DNA from: Bacteriovorax sp.
GTDB lineage: Bacteria; Bdellovibrionota; Bacteriovoracia; Bacteriovoracales; Bacteriovoracaceae
Length of the DNA: 64,000 nt
Assembly: GCA_014377485.1 (NCBI GenBank)
Contig: JACMPM010000002.1
Span: forward strand, 62,001-126,000
Reading direction: 5' to 3'
This document shows, piece by piece, positions 24,203-30,906 of this stretch. Numbering within the stretch: the first letter of the stretch is position 1; each line of letters starts with the position of its first letter. Made by a program: the position numbers and the translations under genes. A model generated the notes under the pieces. That model was not told the origin of the DNA, did not search any database, and saw only the letters and a list, made by a program, of their open reading frames with translations.

Positions 24203-25048
24203 TTATTCGTTAGCTGGAGTTGTGTCATTTGACCCAGCTCCATTATCCCCTTCATCTTCACTATCAAACTTAATATCAAAAAATTCTTTAGTCTCTTCAA
24301 CTGTCTCTTGAGGTTTAGTTTCTAGTTTGAGTTCTGCCACAACAGTTCCTCTTCCCATAATTTTACGCTGGCGTCTGAGAATGTAAGCTGATGGTTTATT
24401 GATTTTAAATTTAATAGGATTCGGAAGAACGGAAGCAATTAATGCAGCTTCTGCACGAGTCAGATTACGAGCATTTTTATGAAAATATTTCTGCGAAGCG
24501 GCCTCAACTCCATAAACTCCCTGGCCTAATTCAATAACATTTAAATAAACTTCAAGAATGCGTTTTTTACTCCAGAGATGTTCAATCAAAACTGTAAAAT
24601 AAACTTCCATTCCTTTTCGCAGCCAGCTTCTGGCCGGCCATAAAAAAACATTCTTAGCGGTCTGCTGAGAAATGGTACTCGCTCCTTTTTGTTTTTTATG
24701 AGTCTTGTTGTATTTCATAGCTTTTTCAATGGCCTCGAAATCAAAACCATTATGGATATAAAATTTGGCATCTTCAGCTTTAATCACTGCTAATTGCATT
24801 GGGCGTGCAATCTGTTCGATAGGAACCCATTTCTTTTCTATGCCAATCCAACCATTATTAAAAAGTGAAAGGGTACTTTTCCAGGTCATCAAAGGAGTGT
24901 ATGGAACGGGAACAAAACGATAAATAACAACGCTACTAATGCTTAAGATAAGAAATCCCAGAGTCATAGTTAGAATTAATTTTAATAAGCGTTTGAGTCG
25001 AGTTTTAGGAAGTACGTCGCCAAAAGGGAGTGGGGTCTCATTAATCAT
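24203..25048 (-). CDS. mtgA: Monofunctional peptidoglycan glycosyltransferase
   Basis: 281 residues. One N-terminal membrane helix (about 22-46), then a GT51 domain: KAEDAKFYIHNGFDFEA is motif 1 with the catalytic Glu, KGASTISQQTAKNVFL motif 2, KKRILEVYLNVIELG motif 3-4, and a conserved AALIASVLPNP. It polymerises lipid II into glycan chains on the periplasmic face. There is no transpeptidase domain. The C-terminus has an acidic, poorly ordered tail of about 50 residues. Its start overlaps the NADAR gene by 8 bp. Confidence 0.93.
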   Translation of the reverse strand: MINETPLPFGDVLPKTRLKRLLKLILTMTLGFLILSISSVVIYRFVPVPYTPLMTWKSTLSLFNNGWIGIEKKWVPIEQIARPMQLAVIKAEDAKFYIHNGFDFEAIEKAMKYNKTHKKQKGASTISQQTAKNVFLWPARSWLRKGMEVYFTVLIEHLWSKKRILEVYLNVIELGQGVYGVEAASQKYFHKNARNLTRAEAALIASVLPNPIKFKINKPSAYILRRQRKIMGRGTVVAELKLETKPQETVEETKEFFDIKFDSEDEGDNGAGSNDTTPANE

Positions 25049-25625
25049 TGAGTAAAATCTCGCCTTTGGTTGCGACTTTAATTTCCTCTCTAATTTGCAT
25101 CAATTGCTGACCCAACATATTTTTACCAGTGTGGTCTCCACAATCGGCCCAGTAACAATCATTTTTAGTGTGCTCGTAAATATGAGAATTTTGAGTTGAT
25201 AGAAGCAAATCTTTTAAAACTGAGTATTGACTGTATTTTGCATGAAGAGCCACCAACATAAAACCATCTTTCACATCATCCCAATCATCTCGTATTGGAA
25301 GTTTTGAATCGCGGCCAATTTGAGCGGCGAGAAACGGACTTGCTGCGACTCTTACTCTTTCTTGCAAATCATGATCTAGAAATTTATGGGCCTGGTAATA
25401 GTGTTCACTGCTTGGCCAAATTATCCCTTCAATGGTTATTGGAAAAAGAGCGAAATTAGAAAATTCTCCATAGGAATCTTTAACCGAATAAAAATCCAAG
25501 ACTTCATTTTTGTAATCAACGATTGGTGTTCGAGGATAAATTTTGTAGTGAGGAATTTCTTCTTCAGCAAAAGATTTGCTCAAACCAATGGTAAGTAAAA
25601 GAATGATGCTGATCAAAATTTTCAT
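25041..25625 (-). CDS. Exported NADAR-domain protein (YbiA-like)
   Basis: 194 residues. A signal peptide (1-20, ILISIILLLTIGLSKSFA) precedes a NADAR domain: FYSVKDSYGEFSNFA, IIWPSSEHYYQAHKF, KHAKYSQ-like ALHAKYSQ, and WADCGDHTGKNMLGQQLM. Characterised NADAR proteins are N-glycosidases acting on ADP-ribosylated bases or riboflavin intermediates and are normally cytoplasmic. An exported form is unexpected. It is co-transcribed with mtgA. The domain call is firm; substrate and location of action are open. Confidence 0.85.
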   Translation of the reverse strand: MKILISIILLLTIGLSKSFAEEEIPHYKIYPRTPIVDYKNEVLDFYSVKDSYGEFSNFALFPITIEGIIWPSSEHYYQAHKFLDHDLQERVRVAASPFLAAQIGRDSKLPIRDDWDDVKDGFMLVALHAKYSQYSVLKDLLLSTQNSHIYEHTKNDCYWADCGDHTGKNMLGQQLMQIREEIKVATKGEILLND

Positions 25626-25844: not shown

Positions 25845-27479
25845 ATGATTTCATTACACCACGGTGAAAGTGTTTCGGCCTGGATGGATACAGTTCAGAT
25901 GCCGACATTTAGTACTCTTCTCGAAGATATTGATACTGAAGTTTGTATTGTTGGTGGAGGATTAGCAGGGCTAACGACTGCTTACCTTTTATTACAAGCA
26001 GGAAAAAAAGTTTGTGTACTTGAAGGATTTGAAATTGGCAGCGGACAGACCGGAAGAACCACCGCTCAGCTTACTACAGCACTAGATGAAAGATATTTTA
26101 TGCTGGAAAAATTTCATGGTGAAAAAGGGGCGCGACTTGCGGCCGAAAGTCATAGTGCTGCAATAAAAAAAGTTTATGAAATAACTCGTAAAGAAAATAT
26201 TGATTGTGATTTGGAAAAAATAAATGGTTATCTTTTTAATTCACACGACGATCCCAACTATCAACTTAAAAGCAACCGAGATAAAAGTCATGAATATTTA
26301 AATATTGAATTAGAGGCCGTGCTTCGTGCAGGTTTGTCTGATGTCTATATGACTGAAAGAGTACCTCTCAGTTCATTTGATCCGGGACCTGCACTTTGTT
26401 TTCCTGACCAGTTACAACTACACCCTCTTAAATATTTACAAGGCCTGGCACAAGCAATTATTAAAAAAGGCGGACAAATTTTCACCAACTCGCATGTTGT
26501 TGAAGTTCAAGGTGGTGAGGCAGCATTCGTAAGATTACAAAATGATCATATTGTCTCTTGTGACTCTATCGTCGTTGCCACAAATAGCCCCATCAATGAC
26601 CTCGTCGCCATTCACACCAAACAAGCTTCTTACAGAAGTTATGTCATTGGAGTAGAAGTTCCTAAAGGATCTATCATCAAAGGATTGTTCTGGGATACAG
26701 AAGATCCTTATCACTACGTTCGTTTAGAAAAAAATGAAGACAACCATCCCAATGAAGTGCTGTTAGTTGGTGGAGAAGATCATAAGACAGGACAAAATGA
26801 TAATCCTGAACATTGCTACACTCGACTGGAGAATTGGACACGCAAAAGATTCACAGAGGCAGGTAGAGTTATTTATCGTTGGTCAGGTCATGTCATGGAG
26901 CCGGTAGATGGACTCGCTTATATTGGTCATAATCCAATGGACAGCGATAATGTTTATGTCGTTACCGGTCACTCTGGAAATGGCATGACTTATTCGACAA
27001 TCGCGGGAATGCTAATCACTGATCTGATCTTAGAAAAAGAAAATCCATGGAAAAGTTTATACAATCCTTCGCGCATTAGTCTAACGAGCGCAGGGGCTTA
27101 TTTAAAAGAAAACGCAAATACACTTATTCAATATAAAGATTGGTTGATTGAAAAAAAACTTGGTAATCTCGATAGCATTAAAGTAGGTGAAGGTGTTGTG
27201 TATCGTGATGGCCTTCAAATAGTTGCCGCTTATAAGGATGATTATGGAAACCTCGAATTAAATTCTGCAGTTTGTCCTCACTTGGGTGGAATTGTTCATT
27301 GGAATAAAGCGGAAAAATCCTGGGATTGTCCATGCCATGGATCTCGCTTTGATTGCCATGGAAAAGTAATAGACGGACCAGCTGTCTCTGATTTAACACT
27401 GATAAGCTCTACTCCTGCACTTCATCCACCGGACGTGTTAAAAGTGTGGCCGGATGCCGATGCTAATCCAGTATTGTAA
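25845..27479 (+). CDS. FAD-dependent oxidoreductase with C-terminal Rieske domain
   Basis: 544 residues. The N-terminal DAO-type FAD fold has EVCIVGGGLAGLTTAYLL near residue 30 and the long Rossmann Glu (LEGFEIGSG). The C-terminal about 95 residues form a Rieske 2Fe-2S domain with C477-P-H479 and C495-P-C-H498 ligands. Architecture matches YhfW-type proteins found in several bacteria, whose substrate is uncertain. No signal peptide, so cytoplasmic. The ATG has AAAGGA upstream. The 3' end overlaps convergent ligD by 17 bp. Confidence 0.88.
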   Translation: MISLHHGESVSAWMDTVQMPTFSTLLEDIDTEVCIVGGGLAGLTTAYLLLQAGKKVCVLEGFEIGSGQTGRTTAQLTTALDERYFMLEKFHGEKGARLAAESHSAAIKKVYEITRKENIDCDLEKINGYLFNSHDDPNYQLKSNRDKSHEYLNIELEAVLRAGLSDVYMTERVPLSSFDPGPALCFPDQLQLHPLKYLQGLAQAIIKKGGQIFTNSHVVEVQGGEAAFVRLQNDHIVSCDSIVVATNSPINDLVAIHTKQASYRSYVIGVEVPKGSIIKGLFWDTEDPYHYVRLEKNEDNHPNEVLLVGGEDHKTGQNDNPEHCYTRLENWTRKRFTEAGRVIYRWSGHVMEPVDGLAYIGHNPMDSDNVYVVTGHSGNGMTYSTIAGMLITDLILEKENPWKSLYNPSRISLTSAGAYLKENANTLIQYKDWLIEKKLGNLDSIKVGEGVVYRDGLQIVAAYKDDYGNLELNSAVCPHLGGIVHWNKAEKSWDCPCHGSRFDCHGKVIDGPAVSDLTLISSTPALHPPDVLKVWPDADANPVL

Positions 27480-29889
27480 TTCTTTGTTTTACACTTAAGA
27501 ATTTTTTCCATGGATCTGATTTCCTGCTCTTAATTTTGGCGAGAGCTTTTTTAATGGTGAATTGGTCAGAACTTTTTAGTGTAGCCAATTCAATCCAATC
27601 TACGGGAAGTGCCACAGCGCTAATCTTTCTGGCACGTATAGCATATGGGGCAACTGCAGTTGATCCGTAACCGTTTCTTAAATAATCAATAAATATTTTT
27701 CCTTTTCTTAAAGTTTTAGACATTGTTGCAATATAGAGATCGGGAAATCGCAAAACCATTTCATCGGCCAATACTTTACTAAATGCCGTAACTTCCTCCC
27801 AACTATACAGAGGTTCAATTGGAATATGGATGTGAATTCCCTTTCCACCTGTGACTTTGACAAAACTTTTTAATTTTAATTTATCAAGAGTTTTCTTCAT
27901 TTCCAAACATGCTTTCACCACTGTTTTGAAGTTAACAGTTGGGTCGGGATCAAAATCCATTACAATCTGATCTGGATTCTGCAGAGTTTGATAATGACAA
28001 TTCCAGGTATGAATTTCAAAAGCGTTCATCTGCACTAATTGTCGCAATCCCTCAGGAGAATTTAGTGAAATATAAAGTCCTGATTCAGATTTTTCTTTTA
28101 CTTTAAAACTTTTAAAATTCTTTGAAACTACTCCAGGTCCAGGGTGCTTTTGATAAAAGCATTTTTTACCGGCACCTTCCGGACAGCGCACTAACGATAA
28201 AGGCCGGTCACTTACAAAAGGCAGCATGAAAATTGAGACTTTTTGATAGTAATTGGCAATTATTTGTTTTGAAATTTTTTCTTTTGGAAAAATTATTTTT
28301 TCTGGGTGAGTGATTTCCACATTTTCATGGACTTCAATTTTCAAATCACTTTTAGTTAAATGAGCTGCCTTTTCAATAAAAATATCATTAATATCTTTAT
28401 CATTTCGAAATCCTAAAAAAACAGGATGCCGAAGTGACTGATCGGTAGTCCAATTCGAAAATTTTACTTCGGCGACAAGCTTAGGTTTTATCCAATGGAT
28501 CCCCCTGCTTTTTGGTGCTTTAATATCAAAAGATGATTTTTTTTGCTCCAGCTTTTCAACCTTCTTTTTTACTTCAATCAACGATTTATTATCAAATCCA
28601 GATCCAACACTTCCGACATAACGAAATTTTTTTTGTCCTTCATGCTTTTCATATACACCTAAAAGAAGCGCACCTAACTCACTCTCTCTATGCCCCTTTC
28701 CTTCAGTAAACCCTCCAATAACAAATTCTTGTCTTTTAGTGCATTTGGATTTGCACCATATGCGGCTTCGACCGGAACTATAGACCGCTGAATTATATTT
28801 AGAAACAATCCCTTCTAATTCGTGCTGACAAGCTATTTTAAAAAAATCTGCCCCGCTTTTTTTGACATCTTCACTGTAGAAAATAACAGAATTGGATTTA
28901 GGAAGAATCCTTTTTAATTTTTCTTTTCGTTCTTTTAAGGAGAGCTCTCTCAAGTCTTCTCCATTTAGAAACAGCAGATCGAAAATAAACAATTTAATTT
29001 TCGAATCATCACCTAAAGATAAAGCATCTTGAAGCAGTCCAAAATTACTTCTACCTCGATCATCTAATACGACTGCTTCACCGTCAAAAATAGCAGATTC
29101 AATAGAGAGTTTTTTTAAGGCCGCAACCAATCCTTTAAATTTTTCACTCCAGTCGTTGGCATTTCTAGTGAATAAATTAATTTTATTCTTTTGAAGATGG
29201 GCCTGAATACGATAGCCATCGTATTTAATTTCATGAACCCATCCAGAATCTTCGGGTGGAGCATCGACTAGCAAGGACAACTGAGGAGGAACAAAGCCAG
29301 GCCATTTATCTTTTTTTATTACTTTTTTTTTTACTTTTTTTAGTTTTACTGCCTCTTCTTCGTTTGCTGCAATTGGCTCAAGCTCAAAATGCGAATCTAC
29401 TTCTTTATCAGTTTTCTTCATCAATAACCAATTGTGCTTTTTCGAATCATCAGGAGTATGGATTCTCACTAAAACAAAATGCCCTTTAAGCTTTTTACCT
29501 TTTAGAGTGAATTCCAGCTTACCTTTTTTTAAACCTTGATGGGGATCTCCATCAACTTCCCATGTTCCCTTGTCCCAAATATAAACTTCCCCCCCTCCGT
29601 ATTGTCCTTTGGGAATTGTCCCATGAAATTTGGCGTAATCCAGGGGATGATCTTCAACTTCAATGGCTAATCTTTTATCTTCGGGTTTCATCGAAGGCCC
29701 CTTAGGAACCGCCCAACTTTTTAAGACACCATCAAGCTCGAGCCTGAAATCATAATGGAGATGACTTGCATGGTGTTCTTGAATAACAAAAATAAGTCCT
29801 TTAGAATTTTTAGTTTTTGCATTACCTTGAGGTTCCAGAGTTTTACTAAAAATTCTTTTTTTAGAATATGTTTTTAATAATTTTTTCAT
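27463..29889 (-). CDS. ligD: NHEJ DNA ligase LigD (phosphoesterase-ligase-polymerase)
   Basis: 808 residues with all three activities in the order seen in Pseudomonas LigD. The 3'-phosphoesterase lies at about 30-150 (HYDFRLELDG, GTIPKGQYGGGEV). The ATP-dependent ligase lies at about 200-510, with nucleophile K222 in EIKYDGYR. The AEP-type polymerase/primase starts near 530 (ITHPEKIIFP, VKVTGGKGIHIHIP, with MDFDPDP supplying metal-binding Asp). It repairs double-strand breaks with Ku. The ATG overlaps the ku stop by 4 bp. Confidence 0.96.
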   Translation of the reverse strand: MKKLLKTYSKKRIFSKTLEPQGNAKTKNSKGLIFVIQEHHASHLHYDFRLELDGVLKSWAVPKGPSMKPEDKRLAIEVEDHPLDYAKFHGTIPKGQYGGGEVYIWDKGTWEVDGDPHQGLKKGKLEFTLKGKKLKGHFVLVRIHTPDDSKKHNWLLMKKTDKEVDSHFELEPIAANEEEAVKLKKVKKKVIKKDKWPGFVPPQLSLLVDAPPEDSGWVHEIKYDGYRIQAHLQKNKINLFTRNANDWSEKFKGLVAALKKLSIESAIFDGEAVVLDDRGRSNFGLLQDALSLGDDSKIKLFIFDLLFLNGEDLRELSLKERKEKLKRILPKSNSVIFYSEDVKKSGADFFKIACQHELEGIVSKYNSAVYSSGRSRIWCKSKCTKRQEFVIGGFTEGKGHRESELGALLLGVYEKHEGQKKFRYVGSVGSGFDNKSLIEVKKKVEKLEQKKSSFDIKAPKSRGIHWIKPKLVAEVKFSNWTTDQSLRHPVFLGFRNDKDINDIFIEKAAHLTKSDLKIEVHENVEITHPEKIIFPKEKISKQIIANYYQKVSIFMLPFVSDRPLSLVRCPEGAGKKCFYQKHPGPGVVSKNFKSFKVKEKSESGLYISLNSPEGLRQLVQMNAFEIHTWNCHYQTLQNPDQIVMDFDPDPTVNFKTVVKACLEMKKTLDKLKLKSFVKVTGGKGIHIHIPIEPLYSWEEVTAFSKVLADEMVLRFPDLYIATMSKTLRKGKIFIDYLRNGYGSTAVAPYAIRARKISAVALPVDWIELATLKSSDQFTIKKALAKIKSRKSDPWKKFLSVKQRITILD

Positions 29890-30755
29890 GCTCTTTTCTT
29901 GTGAGCAGGTTTTTTGATACTCTTGCTTACTTTTGCAGATATTTTACTTGATACTTTTTTGCTGCTTTTTTTCGATTCCAAGCTTTGTTTAAGAAGAGGC
30001 ATTAAATCGAGAACATTGGAAGCTTTGATCGGTTCTGGAACTTCGTAATCGATGACTTTGCCTTTTCCGCCTTTTATTTTTTTATCGATAATTTTTTTTA
30101 AGTCGGTATAGTAAGTGTCTTTGTATTGTTCTGGCATCCATTTTTCAGTCATTCCATCAACCAGGTCTACGGCCATGCTCATTTCTTTAGGATTAAATTT
30201 AACTTTTTTAAAATCTTTAAAATAATCAACTTTATCCGCTTCGATAACTTCATGAGCAAAACGCATCATCTCCAGAACTAAATAATCCCCTCTCACCATG
30301 ATCATCACTAAGTGCTGTTTCGTTCTCATGACAATTTTAGCAATGGCAACTTTTTTACTTTTTTTCATAGCTTCAGATAATAGGAAATAGCCTTTTTCAC
30401 CATTTTTTTCTGGAACCAGGTAATAAGGTCGTTCTAAAAACATCAAATCGATATCCTTTTGTTCAACAAAATTTTCAATATCTATAGTTCCTGTTGCTTC
30501 AACATTTGCCACCTTAAAATCTTTATCATTCATGACGACGTATTGATTTTTTTTAAATTCATACCCCTTTACAATTCTATTGTAAGGAACTTCTTTTCCA
30601 GTTTTTGCATTTATTTTTTTGTAGCGGATAGGAGATAAATCTTTTTCATCCAACATGGAAAAATGGAGTGTTTTCTCTTCTTCAGCTTTCATCAATCTAA
30701 CCGGAATATTTAACAATCCAAAACTCAGTGCTCCTTTCCAAATATTTGATCGCAT
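29886..30755 (-). CDS. ku: Ku DNA end-binding protein
   Basis: 289 residues from ATG 30755, chosen because AAGGAG lies 6 bp upstream. The start SNIWKGALSFGLLNIPV is diagnostic of bacterial Ku, and RYKKINAKTGKEVPY follows. The C-terminal tail is Lys/Ser-rich (KKSSKKVSSKISAKVSK), which in other Ku proteins helps DNA binding. Ku bridges broken ends and recruits LigD. It forms a two-gene NHEJ operon, divergent from the gene at 30992. Confidence 0.96.
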   Translation of the reverse strand: MRSNIWKGALSFGLLNIPVRLMKAEEEKTLHFSMLDEKDLSPIRYKKINAKTGKEVPYNRIVKGYEFKKNQYVVMNDKDFKVANVEATGTIDIENFVEQKDIDLMFLERPYYLVPEKNGEKGYFLLSEAMKKSKKVAIAKIVMRTKQHLVMIMVRGDYLVLEMMRFAHEVIEADKVDYFKDFKKVKFNPKEMSMAVDLVDGMTEKWMPEQYKDTYYTDLKKIIDKKIKGGKGKVIDYEVPEPIKASNVLDLMPLLKQSLESKKSSKKVSSKISAKVSKSIKKPAHKKRA

Positions 30756-30906
30756 AGAATTCTCCTTGAGTTCTTTACTCACCCTTAATTTTTATATAAC
30801 TCTTTCTCATTTCTCTCAACGCCCAATTTACCCTGACATTTTTCCCGATTGGCTCAGTTTGCCCCAACTCATACAACGCAAACGATATTCTTATATTGAA
30901 AATTTA

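What the first reader, a model, noticed from the sequence alone, without database searches (positions are those of the whole stretch)
25041..25625. NADAR-domain protein with a signal peptide, coupled to a peptidoglycan synthase
NADAR enzymes studied so far reverse ADP-ribosylation or remove damaged riboflavin intermediates inside the cell. This copy has a clear Sec signal peptide and overlaps mtgA by 8 bp. An exported glycosidase could act on nucleotide-like substrates or ADP-ribosylated molecules in the periplasm or in prey, for example as a counter-defence.
Basis: partly seen in the sequence, partly recalled or inferred. Interest (0 to 1): 0.66.

Follow-up and report, generated by a model that had tools for sequence, protein, structure and literature searches.

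The report
Exported NADAR enzyme of predatory bacteria
An enzyme of a kind so far described only inside cells (it strips ADP-ribose from guanine) carries a real export signal here, and the same exported version, sometimes lipid-anchored instead, recurs across the Bdellovibrio/Bacteriovorax group of bacterial predators, so the reaction probably happens in the cell envelope, where nobody has looked for it.

Summary
Window 25041-25625 (-) encodes a 194-residue NADAR protein (YbiA type) with a Sec signal peptide. It overlaps mtgA by 8 bp.

Export is a property of a clade, not of one sequence. All 35 Bdellovibrionota relatives (the window plus 34 genomes) have a hydrophobic export signal before the domain. 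Only 4 of 82 NADARs from other phyla have any candidate, and those look like mis-extended starts. The 35 form one branch of the tree (95/86). About half replaced the type I signal with a lipobox, so export was kept while its form changed.

All eight ADP-ribose-contact positions are kept. A cysteine pair (C157/C162) brackets the substrate loop. It is present or absent as a unit (26 both, 9 neither, 0 single), as expected for a disulfide outside the cytoplasm.

The mtgA coupling is not conserved: direct adjacency occurs in 4 of 35. DarT occurs in only 1 of these 35 genomes.

Best reading: an extracytoplasmic YbiA-type N-glycosidase on the predator's own envelope, probably acting on ADP-ribosylated or related nucleotide material met during prey digestion. 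The substrate is inferred, not shown. Prey counter-defence is possible, but lipid anchoring argues against a freely released effector. New variant of a known family.

The parts
25041..25625 (-). exported NADAR (YbiA-type) protein, 194 aa
25566..25625 (-). Sec signal peptide, residues 1-20 (type I, cleavage predicted after SFA by eye; no SignalP available)
25494..25565 (-). mature N-terminal extension, residues 21-44, motif PHYxxYPxTPxxxY shared by many members of the exported clade and absent from cytosolic YbiA-type proteins; modelled with high confidence (pLDDT 89-97)
25077..25493 (-). NADAR domain, residues 45-183
25404..25406 (-). E74, equivalent to E43 of the ADP-ribose-bound P. nicotianae NADAR (8bau)
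25383..25385 (-). K81, equivalent to catalytically important K50
25311..25313 (-). R105, equivalent to R79 (ADP-ribose contact)
25281..25283 (-). W115, equivalent to W89 (ADP-ribose contact)
25269..25271 (-). K119, equivalent to R93 (ADP-ribose contact); conservative change, K in 33 and R in 2 of the 35 exported proteins
25173..25175 (-). E151, equivalent to E125, the glutamate that defines the YbiA subfamily
25158..25160 (-). D156, equivalent to D130 (ADP-ribose contact)
25155..25157 (-). C157, first of a cysteine pair gained and lost together
25149..25151 (-). W159, equivalent to W133 (ADP-ribose contact), bracketed by the cysteine pair
25140..25142 (-). C162, second of the cysteine pair
24203..25048 (-). 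mtgA, monofunctional peptidoglycan transglycosylase, overlapping by 8 bp; a local neighbour only

Best explanation
This gene encodes an extracytoplasmic NADAR N-glycosidase. The Sec system exports it, a signal peptidase cleaves it (type I here, lipoprotein type in about half of its relatives), and it folds outside the inner membrane as a YbiA-type domain. A C157-C162 disulfide probably staples the loop that carries substrate residues D156 and W159. Like other NADARs it should hydrolyse an N-glycosidic bond to ribose 5-phosphate or ADP-ribose. The most likely substrates are ADP-ribosylated guanine in nucleotides or nucleic-acid fragments, or related NAD- or nucleotide-derived glycosides, that reach the predator's envelope while it digests prey. 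SHOWN by sequence: signal, domain, active-site residues, clade-wide conservation, paired cysteines. INFERRED: periplasmic or outer-membrane location, disulfide, catalytic activity, and above all the substrate and its source. Rough probabilities: exported 0.95; active N-glycosidase 0.85; disulfide 0.75; ADP-ribosyl-guanine-type substrate 0.35-0.4.
For: Export: 35/35 clade members have a signal against 4/82 controls. They form one branch of the ML tree, 95/86, in 98% of bootstraps. Type I and lipobox forms occur within one orthologous clade. The signal region is under purifying selection. Compartment: Cys pair 26 both / 9 neither / 0 single, absent from the tabulated control motifs. DsbB was found in 15 of 35 genomes, and VKOR in all 21 genomes searched for it, which include the 20 without DsbB. 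Catalysis: all eight ADP-ribose-contact positions are kept, seven identical and K for R93, invariant in 35/35 apart from K/R at 119. AF2 pLDDT 93.1; Foldseek best 2b3w YbiA E=1.4e-15 and 8bau NADAR plus ADP-ribose E=6e-8. Four NADAR subtypes from E. coli and a phage, YbiA included, hydrolyse guanosine-ADPr in vitro (PMC11125620). Ecology: B. bacteriovorus secretes nucleases into the bdelloplast and degrades prey DNA completely (PMC7925074).
Against: No gene neighbour is conserved across the clade to name a substrate. No known ART writer partner was found: DarT in 1 of the 35 genomes, Tox-ART-HYD1 in none, though that search had no positive control. The gene is patchy (39 of 369 genomes in the phylum have any strong NADAR), so it is accessory. 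TIGR02464 would name it a riboflavin-intermediate N-glycosidase, a different substrate. No biochemistry or localisation data exist for this clade in the papers searched. No SignalP was available; signals were judged by hydropathy, motifs and conservation.
Confidence: 0.5

Rival explanations
1. An exported NADAR that acts on small NAD-derived or other N-ribosides (NAD, cyclic ADP-ribose, nucleosides, riboflavin precursors) in the periplasm, for nutrient salvage or to destroy signals leaking from prey, and not on ADP-ribosylated guanine.
For: Equivalog TIGR02464 hit, 117.1 bits against a cut-off of 73.7. YbiA-type proteins lack the DNA-binding extension of DarT1-linked NADARs (PMC11543638, PMC11125620). 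NADARs are proposed to act on soluble ADPr derivatives (PMC9503650). No ART partner found.
Against: No conserved salvage-gene neighbourhood. Riboflavin intermediates are cytosolic by established pathway knowledge.
Confidence: 0.27
2. A secreted effector released into the prey cell or bdelloplast that reverses prey ADP-ribosylation defences such as DarTG.
For: Genuine export signal in the Bdellovibrio/Bacteriovorax lineage. Two B. bacteriovorus nucleases with predicted signal peptides leave the predator cell (PMC7925074).
Against: About half the clade carries a lipobox, so those proteins would be tethered to the predator membrane. Getting from the predator envelope into the prey cytoplasm needs a further step with no evidence. 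E. coli YbiA does not rescue DarT1 toxicity in cells (PMC11125620).
Confidence: 0.12
3. Envelope immunity: it removes ADP-ribose put on exposed molecules by antagonists' secreted ADP-ribosyltransferase toxins.
For: Envelope location. One YbiA-type enzyme is an antitoxin for an ART (PMC11125620).
Against: No periplasmic guanine-ADPr target is known. No conserved partner or defence neighbourhood.
Confidence: 0.06
4. A partner of MtgA in peptidoglycan synthesis or remodelling.
For: 8-bp overlap in the window and similar overlaps in L111 and L116; adjacent with a 189-bp gap in L117.
Against: Not adjacent in the other 31 clade members. The family acts on N-ribosides, not on glycan chains.
Confidence: 0.03
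5. An ordinary cytoplasmic YbiA whose true start is downstream of the hydrophobic segment.
For: A TTG at codon 43 would give a bare NADAR domain.
Against: The hydrophobic segment is kept in 35/35 relatives, under purifying selection, with in-clade conversion to lipoboxes. The codon-43 TTG is not conserved in the nearest relative. The cysteine pair fits an oxidising compartment.
Confidence: 0.02

Closest known systems
E. coli YbiA (PDB 2b3w)
   Same: YbiA-subfamily NADAR fold, 44% identity in the structural alignment, TMt 0.82; same catalytic glutamate and ADP-ribose-contact residues
   Different: The solved E. coli protein has no described export signal (from general knowledge it is cytoplasmic), no PHYxxYPxTP extension and no C157/C162 pair; its gene lies in a LexA-controlled operon (PMC11125620)
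Phytophthora nicotianae NADAR bound to ADP-ribose (PDB 8bau)
   Same: Same active-site residues; defines ADP-ribose binding
   Different: 26% identity, fold extension, no export described in the paper searched
DarT1-linked NADAR antitoxins (BC4488 family, E. coli C7 and Geobacter lovleyi)
   Same: NADAR superfamily, guanine-ADPr hydrolysis
   Different: Catalytic Asp instead of Glu, DNA-binding extension, cytosolic antitoxin beside DarT; DarT is absent from 34 of the 35 genomes here
YbiA-YarT pair of myxobacteria
   Same: YbiA subfamily, stand-alone naked domain
   Different: Antitoxin beside an ART; no ART neighbour seen here
NF053876 NADAR family anti-phage protein (DS32_2)
   Same: Same superfamily
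   Different: 93.6 bits against a cut-off of 240: not a member

Membership tests
NADAR superfamily (PF08719), YbiA subfamily | Profile match over the curated cut-off | tested here: met
   103.2 bits against 35.1
NADAR superfamily (PF08719), YbiA subfamily | YbiA fold | tested here: met
   AF2 pLDDT 93.1, Foldseek 2b3w E=1.4e-15
NADAR superfamily (PF08719), YbiA subfamily | Catalytic glutamate in the last strand (Asp in BC4488, His in phage gp30.3) | tested here: met
   E151, invariant 35/35
NADAR superfamily (PF08719), YbiA subfamily | E43/K50 and other ADP-ribose-contact residues | tested here: met
   E74, K81, R105, W115, K119, D156, W159
NADAR superfamily (PF08719), YbiA subfamily | Guanosine-ADPr hydrolase activity | not testable with these tools
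   needs purified protein
Riboflavin-intermediate N-glycosidase (TIGR02464) | Score over the equivalog cut-off | tested here: met
   117.1 against 73.7 bits
Riboflavin-intermediate N-glycosidase (TIGR02464) | Location with its cytosolic substrates | tested here: not met
   export signal clade-wide; sequence evidence only, location itself not measured
DarT1-NADAR toxin-antitoxin | Adjacent DarT | tested here: not met
   no DarT in the own genome; mtgA and an oxidoreductase are the neighbours
Sec-exported protein, type I signal | n/h/c regions and AXA-like cleavage site | tested here: met
   judged without SignalP
Sec-exported protein, type I signal | Actual extracytoplasmic location | not testable with these tools
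   needs reporter fusion or fractionation

The most novel reading that the evidence does not exclude
A bacterial-predator clade evolved the first extracytoplasmic de-ADP-ribosylation enzyme: an envelope-anchored NADAR that removes ADP-ribose from guanine in foreign (prey-derived) nucleic acid or nucleotides, implying that ADP-ribosylated nucleic acid is common enough outside the cytoplasm during predation to select for a dedicated enzyme.
Probability: 0.3. Interest if true: 0.75.

Novelty: new variant of a known kind. Interest (0 to 1): 0.57.

Why it matters
The NADARs whose enzymology is described in the papers searched are intracellular, and those papers do not mention signal peptides or a periplasmic location for them. 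A conserved exported clade means either that NADAR substrates exist outside the cytoplasm or that the family has an unrecognised extracellular substrate. Both can be tested with one purified protein and one reporter fusion. It also gives a new candidate component of how Bdellovibrio-like predators handle prey material.

Tried and rejected
MtgA partnership: rejected as a family trait, direct adjacency in 4 of 35 genomes only. DarT antitoxin: rejected, DarT in 1 of 35. Tox-ART-HYD1 (YarT-like) partner: none in 35, but the search had no positive control, so weak. Anti-phage equivalog NF053876: below cut-off; PADLOC hit PDC-M42C is weak, 39 bits. Neighbour genes as a functional clue: MacB, PLD, APH, Usp and others, no pattern. 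Promoter/terminator scan: no more matches than shuffles. Viral relatives: 5 IMG/VR loci and 281 phage records; the listed matches covered little beyond the domain, so no exported viral form was seen, though their N-termini were not examined further.

Full report
What is there. Window 25041-25625 on the minus strand is a 194-aa ORF with an ATG start. It matches Pfam NADAR at E=2.2e-29 over residues 45-183 and the YbiA-type equivalog TIGR02464 above its cut-off. The closest solved structures are E. coli YbiA 2b3w (E=1.6e-46) and the ADP-ribose-bound Phytophthora NADAR 8bau. The N-terminus MKILISIILLLTIGLSKSFA|EEE reads as a type I Sec signal. The downstream gene, mtgA, overlaps by 8 bp. The own genome (3.95 Mb, 147 contigs) has this one NADAR only.

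Is export real? A profile search of 369 genomes of the phylum found strong NADARs in 39. Reading the N-termini of the orthologous set (34 loci plus the window) showed a hydrophobic export signal in all 35. By eye, about 13 are type I, about 17 have a lipobox (LSSC, LPSC, IVSC, SVSC and similar), and five are ambiguous (ACA/QIAC types). None of the lipobox forms has Asp at +2, so by the E. coli rule (general knowledge) they would go to the outer membrane. Among 82 NADARs of other phyla only 4 had any candidate start with a comparable stretch, and in those the relatives start right at the domain. Fisher p is 1e-25, with the caution that rows of a clade are related and so are not independent trials. 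In an IQ-TREE analysis the 35 form one branch with 95/86 support, recovered in 98% of bootstrap trees. So the simplest account is one origin of export, with later switching between signal types. The signal region evolves under purifying selection (dN/dS about 0.17, linker 0.11, core 0.07). The only downstream alternative start, TTG at codon 43, is not conserved in the nearest relative. A signal anchor would still place the domain outside the inner membrane.

Compartment. Cysteines 157 and 162 flank W159 and directly follow D156, both substrate contacts. Across the 35 they are both present in 26 and both absent in 9, never single. On the tree this needs roughly one joint gain and one joint loss (L113/L114). 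Among the controls, residue 157 is mostly Tyr and 162 mostly Gly, and none of the listed control motifs has the pair; Desulfomonile (L018) has the first Cys only. This is what a disulfide in an oxidising compartment would look like. DsbB was found in 15 of the 35 genomes. VKOR was searched in 21 genomes, the 20 without DsbB plus G000, and found in all 21, so every genome of the set has one or the other.

Catalysis. The 8bau contacts E43, K50, R79, W89, R93, E125, D130 and W133 (PMC11543638) map to E74, K81, R105, W115, K119, E151, D156 and W159. All are invariant in the 35 except position 119 (K in 33, R in 2). The AF2 model has mean pLDDT 93.1 and pTM 0.85; the mature N-terminal extension (residues 21-40) is modelled at 89-97, so it probably packs on the domain. 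Foldseek finds 2b3w and 8bau as the only significant solved matches. E151 puts it in the YbiA subfamily. Four NADAR subtypes from E. coli strains and phage T4 all hydrolysed guanosine-ADPr in vitro, but YbiA did not protect cells from DarT1 (PMC11125620). So an in vitro activity is likely, and the physiological substrate cannot be read from it.

Context. Direct adjacency to mtgA is limited to the window, L111, L116 and L117; in L112 mtgA lies three genes away; in the rest of the clade the neighbours differ from genome to genome and give no functional clue. DarT is present in only one of the 35 genomes (G011). A YarT-like ART family was not found, but that search had no positive control. The gene behaves as a lone, patchy, accessory gene.

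Explanation. The best-supported reading is an extracytoplasmic YbiA-type N-glycosidase held in or near the predator's own envelope. Several relatives are named Bdellovibrio, Bacteriovorax or Halobacteriovorax in their records. B. bacteriovorus degrades prey DNA with secreted nucleases (PMC7925074). I therefore infer that the enzyme meets nucleotide-like material during prey digestion and removes ADP-ribose or ribose phosphate from it. Export and fold are strongly supported; the substrate is a judgement.

Known or new. It is a member of the NADAR superfamily, YbiA subfamily, by every testable criterion. What differs is location, the cysteine pair, the N-terminal extension and the lineage. The two main NADAR papers do not mention signal peptides or the periplasm. 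Searches for NADAR or YbiA together with Bdellovibrio found nothing on topic, and a search for NADAR with signal peptide and periplasm found no paper describing an exported NADAR by title, abstract or term counts. Subscription papers, such as the 2012 survey that defined the superfamily, were not available, so priority is not proven.

Noticed in passing
L119:6049-7806 (genome G019, same family): A 585-aa open frame with a hydrophobic N-terminus, a Cys-rich middle region and a divergent C-terminal NADAR domain, outside the exported clade on a long branch: possibly a second, independent exported NADAR. One 75%-complete genome only.
   Followed up: partly
L146:5930-7297 (genome G359): A 452-aa relative with a signal peptide, an N-terminal region of about 270 aa without any Pfam match, and a C-terminal NADAR; it is the deepest branch of the exported clade.
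   Followed up: partly
L091-L096: A weak NADAR-like family (about 22-26 bits, below the Pfam cut-off, open frames of about 210-250 aa) is scattered through the same family of genomes; its relation to NADAR was not worked out.
   Followed up: no
window 25845-27479: The gene divergent from the NADAR gene is an FAD-dependent oxidoreductase (DAO) with a C-terminal Rieske [2Fe-2S] domain; it also sits upstream of the NADAR gene in L111, L116 and L117.
   Followed up: partly
window 27463-30782: An 808-aa ORF that reads like a bacterial DNA ligase D and a 298-aa ORF that reads like Ku lie next to each other, as an NHEJ pair would; named from the sequence only, no family search was run.
   Followed up: no
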